A DNA stretch of 64,000 bases from contig NZ_RKMF01000017.1 of assembly GCF_003797835.1 (NCBI RefSeq), forward strand, positions 1-64,000, read 5' to 3'. A program made the position numbers and the translations under genes. This stretch comes from Kocuria soli (GTDB lineage: Bacteria; Actinomycetota; Actinomycetes; Actinomycetales; Micrococcaceae). Numbering within the stretch: the first letter of the stretch is position 1; each line of letters begins with the position of its first letter. The notes under the pieces are model-generated. The model searched no databases. It was not told the DNA's origin and saw nothing but the letters and a program-made list of their open reading frames with translations. Of this stretch, positions 45,532-56,577 are shown piece after piece.

Positions 45532-46467
45532 TCAGCCGCGGATGTCGTCGTACAGGATGGTCGAGATGTAGCGCTCACCGAAGTCGCACACGACGGCCAC
45601 GATCAGCTTGTCGCGGTTCTCTTCCTTCTTGGCTTCCTCCAGGGCCGCCCAGACGATGGCACCCGAGGAGATGCCGCCCAGGATGCCTTCCTTGGTGCCC
45701 AGGTCACGAGCCACCCGGATGGAGTCGTCGATCGTGACGTCGTAGACGTCGTCGTAGATCTCGCGGTCCAGGACGTCCGGGACGAAGTTGGCGCCCAGGC
45801 CCTGGATCTTGTGCGGGCCGGCCTTGCCCTCGGTCAGCAACGGGGAGTCCGCGGGCTCGACGACGACCAGGCGCACCGAACCGCTCTGCTCCTTGAGGTA
45901 GCGACCGGCGCCGGTGATGGTGCCGCCCGTGCCGATGCCCGAGACGAACACATCCACCTTGCCTTCGGAGTCCTCCCAGATTTCCGGGCCGGTGGTCTCG
46001 TAGTGCACCTTCGGGTTGGCCTCGTTCTCGAACTGGCGGGCCAGGACGGCGTTCTCCGTGTTCTCGACGATCTCGCGGGCACGGTCGACTGCACCACGCA
46101 TGCCTTCCGCACCCGGGGTCAGGACGATCTCCGCACCGTAGGCGCGCAGCATGGCCCGGCGCTCGGTGGACATGGTCTCCGGCATGGTCAGGATGACCTT
46201 GTAGCCGCGGGCAGCACCCACCATGGCCAGGGCGATGCCGGTGTTGCCGGAGGTTCCTTCGACGACGGTTCCGCCCGGTTTGAGTTCACCGCTGGCCTCA
46301 GCAGCGTCGATGATCGCCTTGCCGATGCGGTCCTTGACCGAGTTGGCGGGGTTGTAGAACTCGAGCTTGACCGCCACGTCGCCCGGGAGGTCCTTGTCCA
46401 GTTCCTGCAGCCGGACCAGGGGTGTGCCGCCGACCAGCTCAGTGACGTTTTCGTAAATTTTGCCCAT
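45532..46467 (-). CDS. cysK: cysteine synthase A
   Basis: PLP enzyme that forms cysteine from O-acetylserine and sulfide. Length 311. The PLP lysine is in NPANSVKDRIG, the substrate loop is EGTSGNTGIALA, and the phosphate-binding loop is GIGTGGTITG. The C terminus ends YDDIRG, an Ile that can insert into or mimic the CysE-binding tail. ATG 46467 follows AAAGGA. Compare the divergent SbnA-like paralogue at 50950. Confidence 0.96.
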   Translation of the reverse strand: MGKIYENVTELVGGTPLVRLQELDKDLPGDVAVKLEFYNPANSVKDRIGKAIIDAAEASGELKPGGTVVEGTSGNTGIALAMVGAARGYKVILTMPETMSTERRAMLRAYGAEIVLTPGAEGMRGAVDRAREIVENTENAVLARQFENEANPKVHYETTGPEIWEDSEGKVDVFVSGIGTGGTITGAGRYLKEQSGSVRLVVVEPADSPLLTEGKAGPHKIQGLGANFVPDVLDREIYDDVYDVTIDDSIRVARDLGTKEGILGGISSGAIVWAALEEAKKEENRDKLIVAVVCDFGERYISTILYDDIRG

Positions 46468-46560
46468 GGGGTGATTCCTTTCGTGTCCTTCGACGTGCCT
46501 GTGTGCCTGCAATGCTCTGCGGGTGCGCTGGATCAATGCGCGGACCCCATCTCCGCCAGG

Positions 46561-50270: not shown

Positions 50271-50849
50271 TTACTCGTCGTGGCCGAAGGGGTCCTCGTC
50301 GACCCCGGGCTGCCAGGTGTTCCCGGCGCGTCCCCATCCTTCTGCGCGAACGGTCTTCTTGGCCTTCTTGGACCACTTGGCGTTGAGACGGTCGACGTAC
50401 AACTTGCCGTCCAGGTGGTCGTACTCGTGCTGCATGACGCGCGCGAACCAGCCGGTGGCCTCCCATGCGATGGGGTTTCCGTGGGGGTCGAAGCCTGCGA
50501 TCTTGACCCAGTCGGCCCGCTTGAGCGGGTAACTCAGTCCGGGGACGGACAGGCAGCCCTCGGATTCCTCGTCCGGGTCCGGGCTCTGTTCGGAGATCTT
50601 GCCCACCGTCAGCACGGGGTTGATGATCTCGCCGCGGTCCGGGGCGTCGTCGTCGTTGGAGAAGACGAAGGTGAAAATCCGCAGCCCCACGCCGATCTGT
50701 GGTGCCGCCAGCCCGACGCCGTGAGCGGCGTCCATGGTTTCGTGCATGTCGGCGATCAGCTCGCGAAGGGAGTCGTCAAAGGCGGTGACCTTGCCGGCGG
50801 GGCGGTGCAGCACCGGATCACCGGTGATGACGACGGGGCGGACGGTCAT
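50271..50849 (-). CDS. def: peptide deformylase
   Basis: Removes the formyl group from new proteins. Motif 1 GVGLAAPQIG, motif 2 EGCLSVPG and motif 3 QHEYDHLDG supply the metal ligands (Cys and two His) and the catalytic Glu. Length 192 with a basic C terminus. ATG 50849 follows GAGGAGT. It converges on yaaA with 12 bp between. Confidence 0.96.
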   Translation of the reverse strand: MTVRPVVITGDPVLHRPAGKVTAFDDSLRELIADMHETMDAAHGVGLAAPQIGVGLRIFTFVFSNDDDAPDRGEIINPVLTVGKISEQSPDPDEESEGCLSVPGLSYPLKRADWVKIAGFDPHGNPIAWEATGWFARVMQHEYDHLDGKLYVDRLNAKWSKKAKKTVRAEGWGRAGNTWQPGVDEDPFGHDE

Positions 50850-50936
50850 GCGGTCGACTCCTCAAAGGGGTGGTTGCGGGGCTGAGAAGGAATCCTAGTG
50901 GAACACCGATTACCAGCGACCTGACGCAATACGCAG

Positions 50937-50942
50937 TATGCT
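50937..50942 (+). promoter_or_regulatory. possible leaderless promoter, -10 TATGCT
   Basis: TATGCT ends seven bases before the in-frame GTG 50950. It overlaps ATG 50938, which makes that ATG a less likely start. Confidence 0.4.
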
Positions 50943-50949
50943 TATAGCT

Positions 50950-51999
50950 GTGTCCATTTCACGGAGTCCCATCGTGGACGATCTCTGCGCGGCGGTCGGC
51001 TCGACGCCGCTGGTCCGATTGTCTCGACTGTTTCCCCGCGCAGAGATTCGCACTGAGGTTCTGGCCAAGGTGGAGTCCATGAACCCCGGGTGGAGTGCCA
51101 AGGACCGGCCGGCCGTGTCCATGCTGGACGATGCTCTGAACCGCGGCGTTCTGGCCCCCGGCGGCACGGTCATTGAGTCCAGTTCAGGCAACTTGGGCAT
51201 TTCACTGGCCCGTGCCTGCACGCTCCGCAATGTCCATTTCGTCTGCGTCGTCGATTCGCGCGCGAACCGCTCCACGGTGGCTGCGATCCGGGCACTGGGT
51301 GCGCGGATCGAGGTGGTCGACCAACCAGACCCCGCTACCGGTGATCTGCTCACCGCTCGACTTGCGCGAGTCCGGCAGCTGCTCGAAGAGATTCCGGGTT
51401 CGGTCAACCTGTACCAGTACGGGAATCCCGCCAACGCTCGCGCACATTGTGACGGCACCATGCGAGAGATCGCCGAGGCAACGGGAGGGCAGCTGGACGT
51501 CATGGTGGCCGCGTGCAGCACCACGGGCACCATCGGCGGATGCCAGAGCTACATCACCGAGCACGGAATGCAGACGGAACTTGTTGCCGTGGACGCTGTG
51601 GGCAGCGTGTTGTTCGGTGGTACACCTGGGGCACGCCTGTTGCCCGGGATGGGTGCCGGATTCGTCACGGACCTTTCACGGGAGGTCAGGCCCGACCGCG
51701 TCATCCGGGTCAGTGAACGCCAATGCATTGCCGGTGCCCGCCTACTCGCTCAGCGCGAAGGAATCCTGGCCGGTGCCTCCACCGGGGGCGTCGTGTGTGC
51801 CACGGCCCAGGTGTTGCGGGAACGGCCGCACCTCAGTCGCCTGGCCGTCATGGTTCACGACGGCGGCCTGCCGTACCTGGAGACCGTGTACGACGACGAC
51901 TGGGTGCGGGAGAACCTGGGCCTGACCCCCGAGGAGATCGAAACGACGATGGACGAGATCGCGGGGCTGCCCACCAACGATGGAACCGATCGTGACTGA
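50950..51999 (+). CDS. SbnA-like PLP-dependent synthase (cysteine synthase superfamily)
   Basis: Protein of 349 residues of the fold-type II family. PLP lysine is in NPGWSAKDRPAVS, the substrate loop is ESSSGNLGISLA, and the phosphate loop is STTGTIGG. The KDRPA motif and SSSGNLG, instead of KDRIG and GTSGNTG of the CysK at 45532, point to the SbnA group, which joins O-phosphoserine and an amino acid such as glutamate rather than sulfide. No SbnB-like dehydrogenase is nearby. GTG 50950 is preferred to ATG 50938 by its promoter spacing. The gene overlaps the next by 20 bases. The exact substrates are unknown. Confidence 0.82.
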   Translation: MSISRSPIVDDLCAAVGSTPLVRLSRLFPRAEIRTEVLAKVESMNPGWSAKDRPAVSMLDDALNRGVLAPGGTVIESSSGNLGISLARACTLRNVHFVCVVDSRANRSTVAAIRALGARIEVVDQPDPATGDLLTARLARVRQLLEEIPGSVNLYQYGNPANARAHCDGTMREIAEATGGQLDVMVAACSTTGTIGGCQSYITEHGMQTELVAVDAVGSVLFGGTPGARLLPGMGAGFVTDLSREVRPDRVIRVSERQCIAGARLLAQREGILAGASTGGVVCATAQVLRERPHLSRLAVMVHDGGLPYLETVYDDDWVRENLGLTPEEIETTMDEIAGLPTNDGTDRD

Positions 52000-53767
52000 C
52001 GTTCCCCGGTCGGGCAGACAGTTGAACCGTGCGGCGCAGGTGGAGCCGGCAGTCGGCGCGACGTTCCGGATCGCCGTCGTCGGTTCCGGTCCCAAGGCGT
52101 TGTTCGCGCTGGAGTCCCTGAGTCGGCGGCTGTCCAAGCGAACGCAGGACGAGCCCCGCGTGCAGATCACCGTGTTCGACGGCAATCCCTCTCCGGGCGT
52201 GGGTGCCGCTTATTCGCCCGAGCAACCGGAGTTCCTGCGGCTCAACGTGACCTCTGAGATCGTGGACGTCCACGAACCCGGAGCCTCGGGGCGCCTGGTC
52301 CCGGATTTCCTCGGGTGGGCCGCGGTGAACGCACCGCACCTGCACCGGGAGACCTACCCGCCCCGAGCCGACGTCGGACGGTACCTGCGCACGGCATGGG
52401 CGGTGGTGGAACGCCGTATGGCAACCGTGGCGGAGGTTGACCATGTCTTTAAGCGGGTAGTTGCGGCCGAGCCCGCCGCGCTCACGCAGCATGGACGCAG
52501 CAGCTGGACCCTCAACACGGCGGACTCTCGGGGGTACGGGCCCTACCACGAGGTCCTGCTGTGCACCGGACACGACGACGACCACGCCGGGGCCCTGTCG
52601 CACGGATGGCGCTCGCCGACCCCGTTGGTTCCGGCGGTCTTTCCGGTCGAGAACAACCTGGGCGAAGACCAGGTGCCGTCGGGGTCCACCGTGGCAGTTC
52701 GGGGGGCCGCGCTGACGTTCGTGGATGCCGCATTGGCACTGACGCAGGGCCGGGGTGGTGTCTTCATCGACCGGGGTCAGGATCGGTTCACGTACCTCCG
52801 TGCCGGGAACGAACCGGCACGGATCCTGCCCGTGTCCAGAGACGGACTCCTGCTGGACGCCAAGCCGGTGGTGGGTGGCGTTCCGGAGGACGTCCAGGCA
52901 CTGCTGGTCGAGGCGCGCGTGCGCCTGCGGGCATCGAGCGAGATGTCCCAGGTGTTGGCCTGTGTCGAGTCAACGGCGGTCAGCATTCTGCACCAACGCA
53001 CCATCAGAGCCTCATCGGATGCCGAATGGCAGATCTCCTACACGTTGCGCAACGGCGGTCCACCGGAATCCGAGCGGCTGGACCGGGCCCGACGTGTCCT
53101 GGCCATGAGTGTCCGCGCGGCCGAACACCCGGAGTCGACAGGCCCGGCCTGGGCCCTCGGGCGGGCCTGGGCCGGGCTGTACCCGGCGATCGTCGAAAAC
53201 CTGAGTTTCCGGGAGTTCGAGCAACGGGAGTGGGCGGAGTTCTCGGCTCTTGCACGGGCGATGGAGAGGTTCGCCTTCGGCCCGCCCCTGGTGAATGCAC
53301 GGAAGATCCTGGCCCTGGTCGAGGCGGGCGTCATCGACCTTTCCTGGATGCGTGCGGGAGTCACCATCGACGGCGACGGCGTGCACGGCCCGTCCGACGA
53401 GGACCCGGAGCCGGACGTCGTGGTTGACGCCGTGCTGGCCCCTCCCGGCGTCAGCGGGTCACAGCAACCGTTGTACCGGGACCTGCTTGAGCGAGGGGTG
53501 CTCAGTGTGCCCTCGGGTCGGCGCGGTGCCCGGGTGACGGAATCGGGGCAGGCCGTTGATGCCGTGGGTGAAGCCGTTGCGGGGCTGTCGCTCCTTGGGC
53601 GTGCCACCGAGGACTACGTGATCGGTCATGACACCCTCAACCGGTCCCTCCACCCGCAGCCGCAACGCTGGGCCGAACGCGTGGTTCAAGTGCTGACCGA
53701 ACGCGGGGCCACCTGCCCGACGGACAGCATTGCGGCAGCCGCTCCAACTACCGCGCCCGCGGAATGA
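51980..53767 (+). CDS. FAD/NAD(P)-binding protein (COG4529-like)
   Basis: Flavoprotein of 595 residues. The N-terminal dinucleotide motif is AVVGSGPKALFALESL, followed by the COG4529 hallmark GVGAAYSPEQPEFLRLNVTS. A second nucleotide-binding region is likely near TVAVRGAALTFVDAALAL. The family is uncharacterised and may contain monooxygenases or oxidases. It sits between two PLP enzymes with overlaps on both sides (20 and 4 bases), so the three proteins should be made together. It might oxidise the adduct made by the SbnA-like enzyme in place of SbnB; that is inference. GTG 51992 is an alternative start. Confidence 0.75.
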   Translation: MEPIVTDVPRSGRQLNRAAQVEPAVGATFRIAVVGSGPKALFALESLSRRLSKRTQDEPRVQITVFDGNPSPGVGAAYSPEQPEFLRLNVTSEIVDVHEPGASGRLVPDFLGWAAVNAPHLHRETYPPRADVGRYLRTAWAVVERRMATVAEVDHVFKRVVAAEPAALTQHGRSSWTLNTADSRGYGPYHEVLLCTGHDDDHAGALSHGWRSPTPLVPAVFPVENNLGEDQVPSGSTVAVRGAALTFVDAALALTQGRGGVFIDRGQDRFTYLRAGNEPARILPVSRDGLLLDAKPVVGGVPEDVQALLVEARVRLRASSEMSQVLACVESTAVSILHQRTIRASSDAEWQISYTLRNGGPPESERLDRARRVLAMSVRAAEHPESTGPAWALGRAWAGLYPAIVENLSFREFEQREWAEFSALARAMERFAFGPPLVNARKILALVEAGVIDLSWMRAGVTIDGDGVHGPSDEDPEPDVVVDAVLAPPGVSGSQQPLYRDLLERGVLSVPSGRRGARVTESGQAVDAVGEAVAGLSLLGRATEDYVIGHDTLNRSLHPQPQRWAERVVQVLTERGATCPTDSIAAAAPTTAPAE

Positions 53768-55257
53768 AGGTCACAATGCTCACGGAACAGATGGCCACGG
53801 ATCCGCTCCGCGCAGCCGCGCACGGCACCCCGCCGTTGGCCGCCAGGCTCGAACCCTGGATGCGCGACCTGCTCTCGGACCCGGGAGAATGCGACCGGTT
53901 GCTCCGCACCTACGGCAGTCCGGTCAACGTCCACGACTTCACACCCCTTCAGCGCAATGCGGCGGAGATGGTGCAGTCCGGTGCGCGTCACGGGGTGCCC
54001 CTCCGAGTGTTCGTCGCGCGAAAGGCCAACAAGACTTTGGGGCTGGTGGAAGCGGTCAAGGACCTGGGGCACGGGATCGACGTCGCCAGCGAACGTGAGT
54101 TGCGCCAGGTCCTGGACCTCGGAATGAGCCCGGCCGACATCATCCTCACGGCGGCCGTCAAACCGGAGCGCTTGCTACGCCTGGCCATGGAACGCGGTGT
54201 ACCGGTGGCCCTGGACAACCTGGACGAGGCCCTGTTGGCCCAGCAGGTGAGTTCCGGGCTGCCTGCGCCGTCACCGGTGGTCTTGAGGATGGCGCCGGAG
54301 CCCGCGGAAGGACTGGCCCCCACACGTTTCGGGGAATCCGCGGAGACCTGGCTTTCCTTCCTGGACGACCACCCGCTTGAGGCCGCGGGACAGCGGGTGG
54401 ACGGGATCCATTTCCACCTGCACGGGTATTCGGCACGGGACCGTGCGGTGGCGCTCACCCAAGCCATCGAGTTCATCGACCGGTTGCGCGAGGGCGGCCA
54501 CGCGCCGTCGTTCATCGACATGGGCGGGGGCGTGCCGATGTCCTACCTGAACGACGGCGAACAGTGGGCCACCTTCTGGGAACAGCACGAAGCTGACTTG
54601 CTGGACGGCGGTACCACCCAGACGTGGCGCGGCGACGGGTTGGGGCTCAGGGTGGAAGACCATTCGGAGGGGCCTCGGCTGACCGGGGTGCGGGACGTGT
54701 ATCCGTACCACCAGTCACCCGTTCGCGGGGAGTGGTTGGACGCGGTCCTGACGACGCAGATCGCGCCAGGGGTGACCGTGGCCCAGGCCCTGAACGAACG
54801 CGGAATCACCCTGCGCTGCGAACCGGGACGGTCCATGCTCGATGGCTGTGGGCTGACCCTGGCGCGAGTGGTGTTCCGGAAGCACACGAGCGACGGTGTG
54901 CCGATCGTGGGCCTCGAGATGAACAGGACCCAGTGCCGGTCCACGTCCGCGGACTTCCTGGTCGACCCTGTCCTGGTCCGGACCGGGTCGCAGGCCCGCG
55001 GGGCCTCGCACAAGGAGGCATGGAACGGAAACGACGGCGCATTCCTGGTCGGCGCTTACTGCATCGAGGCCGAGCTGATCCTGCGTCGTCGCATCTGCTT
55101 CCCGGCCGGCATTGACGTGGGGGACGTGATTGCCCTGCCGAACACGGCCGGTTATCTCATGCACATCCTGGAAAGCGCCTCCCACCAGATCCCGCTGGCC
55201 GCCAACGTGGTGCGGTCCGGGGCGGAATTCGTCCGCGACGGGATTGACCTGGGTTGA
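53764..55257 (+). CDS. PLP-dependent decarboxylase-like enzyme (Y4yA/LysA type, fold III)
   Basis: Protein of 497 residues of the diaminopimelate/ornithine decarboxylase superfamily. The PLP lysine is in VFVARKANKTLG (VKAN in LysA), the His in FHLHGYSARD, the glycine loop in FIDMGGGVP, and the phosphate site in RCEPGRSMLDGCG. An insert of about 55 residues (positions 275-330) is absent from LysA. Resembles rhizobial Y4yA, which is found with an SbnA-like partner. Genes overlap by four bases; ATG 53776 with AAGG in front is another possible start. Whether it decarboxylates or does other PLP chemistry is unknown. Confidence 0.8.
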   Translation: MKVTMLTEQMATDPLRAAAHGTPPLAARLEPWMRDLLSDPGECDRLLRTYGSPVNVHDFTPLQRNAAEMVQSGARHGVPLRVFVARKANKTLGLVEAVKDLGHGIDVASERELRQVLDLGMSPADIILTAAVKPERLLRLAMERGVPVALDNLDEALLAQQVSSGLPAPSPVVLRMAPEPAEGLAPTRFGESAETWLSFLDDHPLEAAGQRVDGIHFHLHGYSARDRAVALTQAIEFIDRLREGGHAPSFIDMGGGVPMSYLNDGEQWATFWEQHEADLLDGGTTQTWRGDGLGLRVEDHSEGPRLTGVRDVYPYHQSPVRGEWLDAVLTTQIAPGVTVAQALNERGITLRCEPGRSMLDGCGLTLARVVFRKHTSDGVPIVGLEMNRTQCRSTSADFLVDPVLVRTGSQARGASHKEAWNGNDGAFLVGAYCIEAELILRRRICFPAGIDVGDVIALPNTAGYLMHILESASHQIPLAANVVRSGAEFVRDGIDLG

Positions 55258-55303: not shown

Positions 55304-55954
55304 TCACAGGTGAGTGACGGCGTGGGCGATCAGCGCTGCCGCGCCCAGGAAGCAGGTGACCACGGGCAGCGCCCCTGAGATCTTGGACCCGAGCCCGCGC
55401 CGAGTGTTCGCTTGGCGGGCCTGGACCTTGGTCAACATTCCCGGCAATGTGCGGGCCAGGACGATCGGTAGCCACGCGGGGGCGCAGGTTAGGGCGGCGA
55501 CTACGACCAGCGCCGGGACAACCGTCCACACACTCCAATTCGAGGCCCCCAAGTGCTGAGAGGCAGCCAGGACCAACGGTATGGACGTGAAGTTGGTGGC
55601 CATGGCGATCACTCCGCGGATGGTGGAGCCCGAGTTTCCGTCGCTTTGCCGCCGTGGGTTGCGGTCCTGCCGGAGCAGGTGAATGCCGTACCCGATCAGG
55701 GCTGCGGCCAACACGACGTCTACGCCGGTTGAGACGATCTCGCGCTCCACGAACGACGTGAATGCTGCACCGAGCAACCCGGCCCCGATCACACAGATCA
55801 CCGTGACGACGGCGAACATGCCGACGGTGTACCGGACTGTGGCCCGGGCGCTGTCGTTGACCTGGAGGGTGGTCGCATTGACTAACACCATGGGGCTGAC
55901 AGCCGACAACAGGGCCAGCGGAAGGACGGACGATACGACACCAACTGCGGACAC
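55304..55954 (-). CDS. LysE/GAP-superfamily-like membrane exporter
   Basis: Protein of about 216 residues with six hydrophobic segments, first LPLALLSAVSPMVLVNATTL, last VVTCFLGAAALIAHAV. A polar loop (RQDRNPRRQSDGNSGS) divides it in two halves, the arrangement of small exporters such as LysE and the GAP family. It converges on the three-enzyme operon, which suggests, but does not show, export of the operon product. GTG 55954 is chosen because the residues before it are not membrane-protein-like. Start uncertain. Confidence 0.6.
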   Translation of the reverse strand: MSAVGVVSSVLPLALLSAVSPMVLVNATTLQVNDSARATVRYTVGMFAVVTVICVIGAGLLGAAFTSFVEREIVSTGVDVVLAAALIGYGIHLLRQDRNPRRQSDGNSGSTIRGVIAMATNFTSIPLVLAASQHLGASNWSVWTVVPALVVVAALTCAPAWLPIVLARTLPGMLTKVQARQANTRRGLGSKISGALPVVTCFLGAAALIAHAVTHL

Positions 55955-56146
55955 GTCGCTATTGGAGCACAGATCTCCGTGCTGTTCCGTCGGTGATGCG
56001 GAAGTCGGCCAACATGCGTCAGCGCAGCAAGAAAGCACAACACATCGCAAGCTTGGCGTGGGTCAAGGTGTGGTGTGCTCTGTGGGTCTTGTATGGCTCG
56101 TGCCAGGCCCGTTCCGGGTGAAGCCAGCTCGCCGAAAGGAACCGTC

Positions 56147-56577
56147 GTGACCACTCCCCCCTTGGCTGGTGGGACAGCGGCTTCGGAGAAGGAATCCCGG
56201 CCGAACAGGTGGTGTTGGCGGGTGTGCGGGACATTGATCCTCCCGATTTGACCATGATCACCGAGCACGGCATCCCGGTGGTGCCACCCGGTCCGGACTT
56301 CGCTCGTCGGCTGAGTGAAGCAGTTGCGGGTCGACCGGTGTATGTCCACGTGGATTGCGATGTGTTGGAACCGGGTACTGTCTCCACAGATTACGTCGTG
56401 GGCAACGGGCTGACCCTGGATGACCTCCATGCTGGCTTGACCGTACTTGCCGACGGCGACGTGGTAGGTATCCAGATCGCAGAATTCGAGTCGGGGGAAG
56501 ATCAGGAAACGACTGCTCACGCGGCTTCCCAGGTAGTCCGGGCCATCCGCCCTGTTCTGCCTGTTTTCGGAGTCTGA
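56147..56577 (+). pseudogene. remnant of an arginase/agmatinase-family (ureohydrolase) gene
   Basis: The frame open from about 56165 to 56577 encodes only the C-terminal half of a ureohydrolase: VVLAGVRDIDPPDLT, then VYVHVDCDVLEPG with the Asp-x-Asp metal ligands, and GIQIAEFESGEDQET. Family members have about 300 residues and an N-terminal half with a His and a DAHxD motif; both are missing. A good start (GAAAGGAACCGTC before GTG 56147) lies in a different frame, so the gene appears to have lost its N-terminal half by deletion plus frameshift. A short functional protein from GTG 56209 is possible but would lack most of the metal site. Confidence 0.75.

What the first reader, a model, noticed from the sequence alone, without database searches (positions are those of the whole stretch)
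50950..55257. Three-enzyme operon: SbnA-like synthase, COG4529 flavoprotein and Y4yA/LysA-like PLP enzyme
The genes overlap by 20 and 4 bases, so they form one unit. SbnA-type enzymes make N-(2-amino-2-carboxyethyl)-amino acids; SbnB normally oxidises the product to 2,3-diaminopropionate. Here SbnB is absent and an uncharacterised flavoprotein is in its place, followed by a fold-III PLP enzyme with a 55-residue insert. There is no IucA/IucC-type or NRPS synthetase, so the product is probably a small diamino or decarboxylated amino acid that is exported. I propose an unknown pathway: condensation, flavin-dependent oxidation, decarboxylation. Rhizobia have SbnA-like and Y4yA proteins together, suggesting a transferable module.
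Basis: partly seen in the sequence, partly recalled or inferred. Interest (0 to 1): 0.75.

Follow-up and report, generated by a model that had tools for sequence, protein, structure and literature searches.

The report
Portable three-enzyme cassette, product unknown
Three overlapping genes in a Kocuria-like bacterium form a fixed three-enzyme assembly line, found together in dozens of bacteria in three phyla, that most likely builds, decarboxylates and N-oxygenates a small serine-derived diamino acid that nobody appears to have described.

Summary
The operon is real: SbnA-like PLP synthase, COG4529 flavoprotein and Y4yA-type PLP decarboxylase overlap by 20 and 4 bases. It is a conserved module. 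Of 69 flavoprotein relatives in public genomes, 63 have both partners adjacent; two more are cut by contig ends and four stand alone. In about 30 the flavoprotein and Y4yA are fused in one ORF, with several independent fusions. The three protein trees track each other (r 0.88-0.93). In Kocuria the cassette sits between def and aroE, and a congener shows the empty site. Enzyme 1 carries SbnA's phosphoserine-selectivity residues, so it is not an ordinary cysteine synthase. The flavoprotein models as a class B monooxygenase whose best solved match is an aspartate N-hydroxylase (FzmM), without its aspartate contacts. Y4yA keeps decarboxylase residues. No synthetase, transporter or regulator is consistently linked. 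Elsewhere the Y4yA-SbnA pair carries a different third enzyme (octopine-type dehydrogenase, OCD-family protein, class V aminotransferase), so the flavoprotein is better read as a tailoring enzyme than as an SbnB substitute. Best model: phosphoserine + amino acid -> N-(2-amino-2-carboxyethyl)-amino acid -> decarboxylated ethylenediamine -> N-oxygenated product. Module shown; chemistry inferred; product unknown.

The parts
50938..51999 (+). Enzyme 1: SbnA-type PLP synthase (predicted L-phosphoserine + amino acid -> N-(2-amino-2-carboxyethyl)-amino acid); K55 = PLP lysine; R141, Y161, S194 = SbnA selectivity residues; alternative GTG start at 50950
51980..53767 (+). Enzyme 2: COG4529/NAD_binding_9 flavoprotein, modelled as a class B FAD/NADPH monooxygenase of the FzmM fold with helical substrate domain; N89 invariant (= catalytic Asn62 of 8CP2), aspartate-site residues not kept
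53764..55257 (+). Enzyme 3: Y4yA-family fold-III PLP decarboxylase; K87, H218, E353-R356, C433, Y464 invariant
50850..50937 (.). Short divergent intergenic region between def and enzyme 1, presumably holding the promoter; no DtxR- or Zur-like box above chance
51980..51999 (+). 20-base overlap of enzymes 1 and 2
53764..53767 (+). 4-base ATGA overlap of enzymes 2 and 3; 4 or 8 bases in 15 of the unfused loci, fused in about 30 others
50271..50849 (-). Flank: def (peptide deformylase), same flank in the four other Kocuria carriers
55304..56050 (-). Flank: SfLAP-like membrane protein (below the Pfam cut-off), part of the ancestral neighbourhood, not of the module

Best explanation
A self-contained, horizontally mobile three-enzyme pathway. 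SHOWN: the three families form a fixed, co-inherited module, usually in this order, with enzymes 2 and 3 often fused. [quoted passage not shown] (2) Y4yA forms an aldimine with the free alpha-amine of that adduct and decarboxylates it, giving an N-(2-aminoethyl)-amino acid (a carboxylated ethylenediamine); (3) the flavoprotein, an NADPH/O2 class B monooxygenase related to FzmM/CreE, N-oxygenates this product (hydroxylamine, oxime or nitro). The order of steps 2 and 3 is uncertain, but a PLP decarboxylase needs a free alpha-amine, which favours decarboxylation first.
For: Co-occurrence: 63 of 69 flavoprotein relatives have both partners; in a separate even sample of 346 Actinomycetota all four strong flavoprotein hits sit beside a Y4yA hit. 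Fusion with at least four changes forced on the tree and mirror-tree r 0.88-0.93 against a permutation maximum of 0.22. Enzyme 1: R132/Y152/S185 of S. aureus SbnA (PMC12414870) kept in 68-69 of 69 relatives; the genome's own CysK has A/F/G. Flavoprotein: profile match to 8CP2 at E 4e-51 and model (pLDDT 90) match at E 1e-30, ahead of other class B enzymes including SidA and KtzI. Y4yA: PLP lysine and acid cysteine invariant, nearest folds D-Orn/D-Lys and diaminopimelate decarboxylases. Other Y4yA-SbnA pairs have a different third enzyme, as expected if Y4yA acts directly on the SbnA adduct and the third enzyme is a tailoring step.
Against: No enzyme of the family has been assayed. The solved relative of COG4529 found here is an N-hydroxylase only because FzmM is the one member in the PDB; other members could do different oxidations, and a generic paralogue in the same genome is closer to FzmM than the triad protein is (E 1e-78). 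The amino acid partner is unknown. Four loci have the flavoprotein alone. With no transporter or synthetase linked, what the product is for is unclear.
Confidence: 0.42

Rival explanations
1. One reading: condensation by enzyme 1, oxidative cleavage of the adduct by the flavoprotein in place of SbnB to give 2,3-diaminopropionate plus a keto acid, then decarboxylation or other conversion of diaminopropionate by Y4yA (for example to ethylenediamine).
For: Enzyme 1 is close to true SbnA; no SbnB passes its cut-off in the genome; N-hydroxylation of the secondary amine followed by hydrolysis could in principle have the same outcome.
Against: The flavoprotein has the class B NADPH monooxygenase fold, not a dehydrogenase or oxidase fold. 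OCD proteins in the same slot elsewhere are not SbnB either (93-103 of 326.9 bits), and the octopine-type dehydrogenases there are of a type that usually joins, not cleaves, C-N bonds (general knowledge).
Confidence: 0.22
2. The flavoprotein N-oxygenates a simple amino acid (aspartate or glutamate) first, and enzyme 1 then uses the hydroxylamine as nucleophile, giving an N-O or N-hydroxy linked serine derivative that Y4yA decarboxylates.
For: FzmM/CreE act on free aspartate (PMC10404684). Basic residues K39, K295 and R555 of the site are kept (R555 by extension of the alignment).
Against: Asp-site residues R412, N413 and R416 align to Y401, P402 and V405. The frequent flavoprotein::Y4yA fusion suggests these two steps are consecutive. 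Enzyme 1 has the ordinary SbnA site.
Confidence: 0.15
3. The triad is part of a siderophore or metallophore pathway completed by unlinked genes (for example the IucA/IucC enzyme on contig C22).
For: The genome has an IucA/IucC gene; sbnA-like and y4yA genes sit in siderophore-type clusters in rhizobia.
Against: That IucA/IucC gene lies among a PLP decarboxylase, an amine N-monooxygenase and acyltransferases, reading as desferrioxamine-type. Three of ten triad genomes tested lack IucA/IucC. No iron or zinc box above chance. No synthetase seen within about 7 kb in the loci surveyed.
Confidence: 0.12

Closest known systems
SbnA of staphyloferrin B biosynthesis (EC 2.5.1.140)
   Same: Fold-II PLP synthase; selectivity residues R132/Y152/S185 kept; NCBIfam SbnA is the best-scoring model.
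   Different: Just below the curated cut-off; no SbnB, no NIS synthetase linked; partnered with a flavoprotein and Y4yA.
FzmM/CreE L-aspartate N-hydroxylases (8CP2, PMC10404684)
   Same: Same three-domain class B fold over the full length; catalytic Asn kept.
   Different: Aspartate-contact residues of the helical domain not kept; partner genes differ; about 20% identity in the structural alignment.
Y4yA family and the rhizobial y4yA-y4xP-y4xO-y4xN-y4xM genes ('enigmatic' in PMC3973906)
   Same: Y4yA decarboxylase next to an SbnA-like synthase.
   Different: Rhizobia have an octopine/nopaline-type dehydrogenase, IucA/IucC and MFS in place of the flavoprotein; their synthase has R/S/G at the selectivity sites; Y4yA only about 28-30% identical.
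L-alanosine pathway (aln/ala; PMC11705231, PMC7347517)
   Same: Also joins diaminopropionate-type chemistry with an FzmM/CreE homologue (AlnM/AlaI).
   Different: As described in those reviews it uses a carrier protein, an acyl-CoA-dehydrogenase-like hydroxylase, a cupin protein and a CreD-type lyase.

Membership tests
SbnA (TIGR03945 equivalog) | Score over the curated cut-off of 349.95 bits | tested here: not met
   336.5 bits; best-scoring family but short of the cut-off
SbnA | PLP lysine and selectivity residues R132, Y152, S185 | tested here: met
   K55, R141, Y161, S194; 68-69 of 69 relatives
[quoted passage not shown]
   needs an enzyme assay
Staphyloferrin B-type diaminopropionate pathway | SbnB present | tested here: not met
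   best match in the genome 84.6 bits against 326.9
NIS siderophore cluster | IucA/IucC synthetase linked to the genes | tested here: not met
   none in the loci surveyed by protein comparison; the genome's only copy is unlinked
FzmM/CreE aspartate N-hydroxylase | FAD and NADPH domains with helical substrate domain; catalytic Asn | tested here: met
   N89 in 42 of 42
FzmM/CreE aspartate N-hydroxylase | Aspartate-contact residues R412/N413/R416 of the entry chamber | tested here: not met
   align to Y401, P402, V405
FzmM/CreE aspartate N-hydroxylase | CreD-type nitrosuccinate lyase partner | not tested
   not searched for specifically
Fold-III PLP decarboxylase (LysA/ODC-like) | PLP lysine, HxH-region His, GGG, EPGR, general-acid Cys, C-terminal Tyr | tested here: met
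   invariant in A2 and A4
Diaminopimelate decarboxylase (LysA) | Score over the LysA cut-off of 297.9 bits | tested here: not met
   85.5 bits
Y4yA family | Relatedness to proteins annotated Y4yA, next to an SbnA-like synthase | tested here: met

The most novel reading that the evidence does not exclude
The cassette defines an unrecognised family of N-oxygenated ethylenediamine-type amino acids, such as N-(2-hydroxyaminoethyl)-glutamate (which could close to a cyclic hydroxamate), made by a transporter-free three-enzyme unit. It would be one of at least four branches of a wider kit in which a conserved SbnA-Y4yA pair builds an aminoethyl-amino acid and a swappable third enzyme (monooxygenase, octopine-type dehydrogenase, OCD protein, aminotransferase) finishes it.
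Probability: 0.35. Interest if true: 0.78.

Novelty: new variant of a known kind. Interest (0 to 1): 0.57.

Why it matters
It is a compact, repeatedly fused pathway spread over skin, cheese, gut-associated and marine bacteria (many Corynebacterium, Brachybacterium, Kocuria, Sulfitobacter) with no described product. It links two well-studied enzyme types, SbnA and FzmM-like monooxygenases, in a new way, and its comparison with the rhizobial y4y/y4x genes gives those long-enigmatic genes a testable chemistry. The two-gene fused form makes reconstitution easy.

Tried and rejected
Ordinary cysteine synthase: rejected on residues and context. Aspartate N-hydroxylase proper: aspartate contacts absent. 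Metal-regulated operon: no DtxR- or Zur-like box above shuffled sequence (crude consensus test only). SfLAP-like gene as exporter: present at the empty site without the triad, not found in the other carriers. Linked synthetase: none. Clustering of neighbouring ORFs for a fourth partner gave mostly antisense or syntenic housekeeping ORFs; ten sampled neighbours were unrelated to each other, one being an MFS protein. Viral contigs: no relatives; phages: one weak hit. Literature searches found no paper on the triad in the open-access library; subscription papers were not searchable. Foldseek against the viral library was not run.

Full report
OBSERVATION. The first could start at ATG 50938 or GTG 50950. 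Domain searches give PALP, NAD_binding_9 and Orn_Arg_deC_N. Among NCBIfam models the first is closest to SbnA (336.5 bits, cut-off 349.95); the third is far below the LysA cut-off.

ORGANISM AND SITE. The window is contig C7 of a 2.95 Mb genome whose nearest named relatives with the module are Kocuria coralli, K. subflava and K. palustris. Four congeners among 26 carry the triad, each next to def. Congener G003 has yaaA-def-SfLAP-aroE without the triad, which is the empty site, and G006 has yaaA-def-SfLAP. The SfLAP-like gene was not found near the triad in the four other carriers. The triad is therefore an accessory block and SfLAP is not its exporter.

A FIXED MODULE. A scan of 84,980 species genomes with the flavoprotein alignment gave 69 relatives. 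Both partners are adjacent in 63; two loci are cut by contig ends; four (L063, L094, L097, L109) lack both. The query alignment was built mostly from triad members, so this number is biased upward; but in an evenly drawn sample of 346 Actinomycetota genomes all four strong flavoprotein hits also had Y4yA next to them, and the one weak hit (26% identity) did not. Hosts include Kocuria, Brachybacterium, Microbacterium, Micropruina, Tessaracoccus, many Corynebacterium, Patulibacter, Nitriliruptoraceae, Sulfitobacter and relatives, and the planctomycete Gimesia; plasmid copies occur in Sulfitobacter and Tsukamurella. In 32 loci the flavoprotein and Y4yA lie in one ORF (28 in the clean set); L107 is doubtful and may be a frameshift. 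Fusion needs six changes on the tree, at least four forced by well-supported branches. Distances in the three protein trees correlate at 0.88-0.93 (permutation maximum 0.22). Part of that correlation reflects shared species history.

NO LINKED FOURTH PARTNER SEEN. Comparison with IucA/IucC, MFS, MATE, OCD and octopine-dehydrogenase references found none within the fetched flanks of the 69 loci. Ten sampled neighbours were unrelated to each other (one is an MFS protein in L033). The genome lacks NRPS condensation domains; its IucA/IucC gene is on another contig, next to a PLP decarboxylase, an amine N-monooxygenase and acyltransferases, read here from sequence as desferrioxamine-type. Three of ten triad genomes tested have no IucA/IucC at all. 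No iron or zinc regulator box exceeds chance.

ENZYME 1. Aligned to S. aureus SbnA, the window protein keeps K47, S75, R132, Y152 and S185. The last three were named as the residues for selective O-phosphoserine binding (PMC12414870). They are kept in 69, 68 and 68 of 69 triad enzymes. The genome's own CysK (45532-46536) has A, F and G there. SbnA-like partners of other Y4yA proteins mostly have R with S, H or Y, and G in place of S185, so they are a different branch.

ENZYME 2. A single-sequence search found nothing in the PDB, but the family profile matches the aspartate N-hydroxylase 8CP2 at E 4e-51 over the full length. The AlphaFold2 model (pLDDT 90.4, pTM 0.89) matches 8CP2 at E 1e-30, TM 0.70, with Baeyer-Villiger and ornithine/lysine N-hydroxylases next at about 1e-10. 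Mapping the site described in PMC10404684 through the profile alignment: catalytic Asn62 = N89 (42 of 42), Trp51 = Y78 (aromatic in all), Arg13 = K39 (K or R), Arg266 = K295 (42 of 42), Arg577 = R555 (40 of 42; by extension beyond the printed alignment). R412, N413 and R416 align to Y401, P402 and V405 and are not kept. So: class B monooxygenase, basic pocket, different substrate. Caution: 8CP2/8CP5 is the only COG4529-type structure found, and a paralogue elsewhere in this genome is closer to it (E 1e-78), so the N-hydroxylase reading is an inference from fold.

ENZYME 3. Y4yA keeps K87, H218, GGG, EPGR, C433 and Y464, aligning to diaminopimelate decarboxylase. The model's best solved matches are D-ornithine/D-lysine and diaminopimelate decarboxylases. 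The acidic residue after the cysteine is shifted (C-I/L-E/D instead of C-E), so the substrate differs.

THIRD-SLOT SWAP. Every Y4yA locus examined has an SbnA-like neighbour. The third redox or PLP enzyme varies: octopine/nopaline-type dehydrogenase plus IucA/IucC and MFS in Sinorhizobium; OCD-family protein, mostly with MATE, in Mycobacterium, Rhodococcus and another actinobacterium, and without MATE in Agrobacterium; class V aminotransferase in other Actinomycetota. The OCD proteins score 93-103 against the SbnB cut-off of 326.9, so they are not SbnB. The simplest reading is that Y4yA acts on the SbnA adduct and the third enzyme finishes the product. The Sinorhizobium set matches the parts of rhizobactin (ethylenediamine joining alanine and lysine, plus malate; parts list in PMC7676072): this is my proposal, not shown.

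MECHANISM. Proposed: O-phosphoserine + amino acid (glutamate likely) -> N-(2-amino-2-carboxyethyl)-amino acid -> decarboxylation -> N-(2-aminoethyl)-amino acid -> N-oxygenation. The module and residue patterns are shown; all three reactions, their order and the product are inferred. A product with an N-hydroxylated terminal amine could close on its alpha-carboxylate to a cyclic hydroxamate; that is speculation.

NOVELTY. No paper on this triad was found in the open library. Each enzyme type is known, the combination appears undescribed: a new variant of a known kind.

Noticed in passing
window 56209-56577: Fragment with only the C-terminal half of an arginase-family protein (profile 154-276 of 280), apparently a gene remnant between the SfLAP-like gene and aroE.
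   Followed up: no
L035, L039, L040 (Sinorhizobium plasmids): y4yA-y4xP-octopine-type dehydrogenase-IucA/IucC-MFS fits the building blocks of rhizobactin; next to a TonB-dependent siderophore receptor in L035 and L039. The genes are called enigmatic in PMC3973906.
   Followed up: partly
L136, L137, L139, L141, L142: A further branch: Y4yA and SbnA-like gene near a class V (cysteine desulfurase-like) aminotransferase in Actinomycetota.
   Followed up: partly
L037 (Agrobacterium pTi): OCD-Y4yA-SbnA-like genes beside aepX, cytidylyltransferase and CDP-alcohol phosphatidyltransferase genes, possibly a phosphonate product.
   Followed up: no
L147:767-2842 (own genome, contig C5): A 691-aa COG4529 paralogue far closer to aspartate N-hydroxylase 8CP2 (E 1e-78) than the triad flavoprotein.
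   Followed up: partly
L094, L097, L109, L063: Flavoprotein relatives without SbnA or Y4yA neighbours, three of them in Corynebacterium; could be remnants or a separate use.
   Followed up: no
L114 (own genome, contig C22): Desferrioxamine-type cluster: PLP decarboxylase, amine N-monooxygenase/acyltransferase, IucA/IucC.
   Followed up: partly
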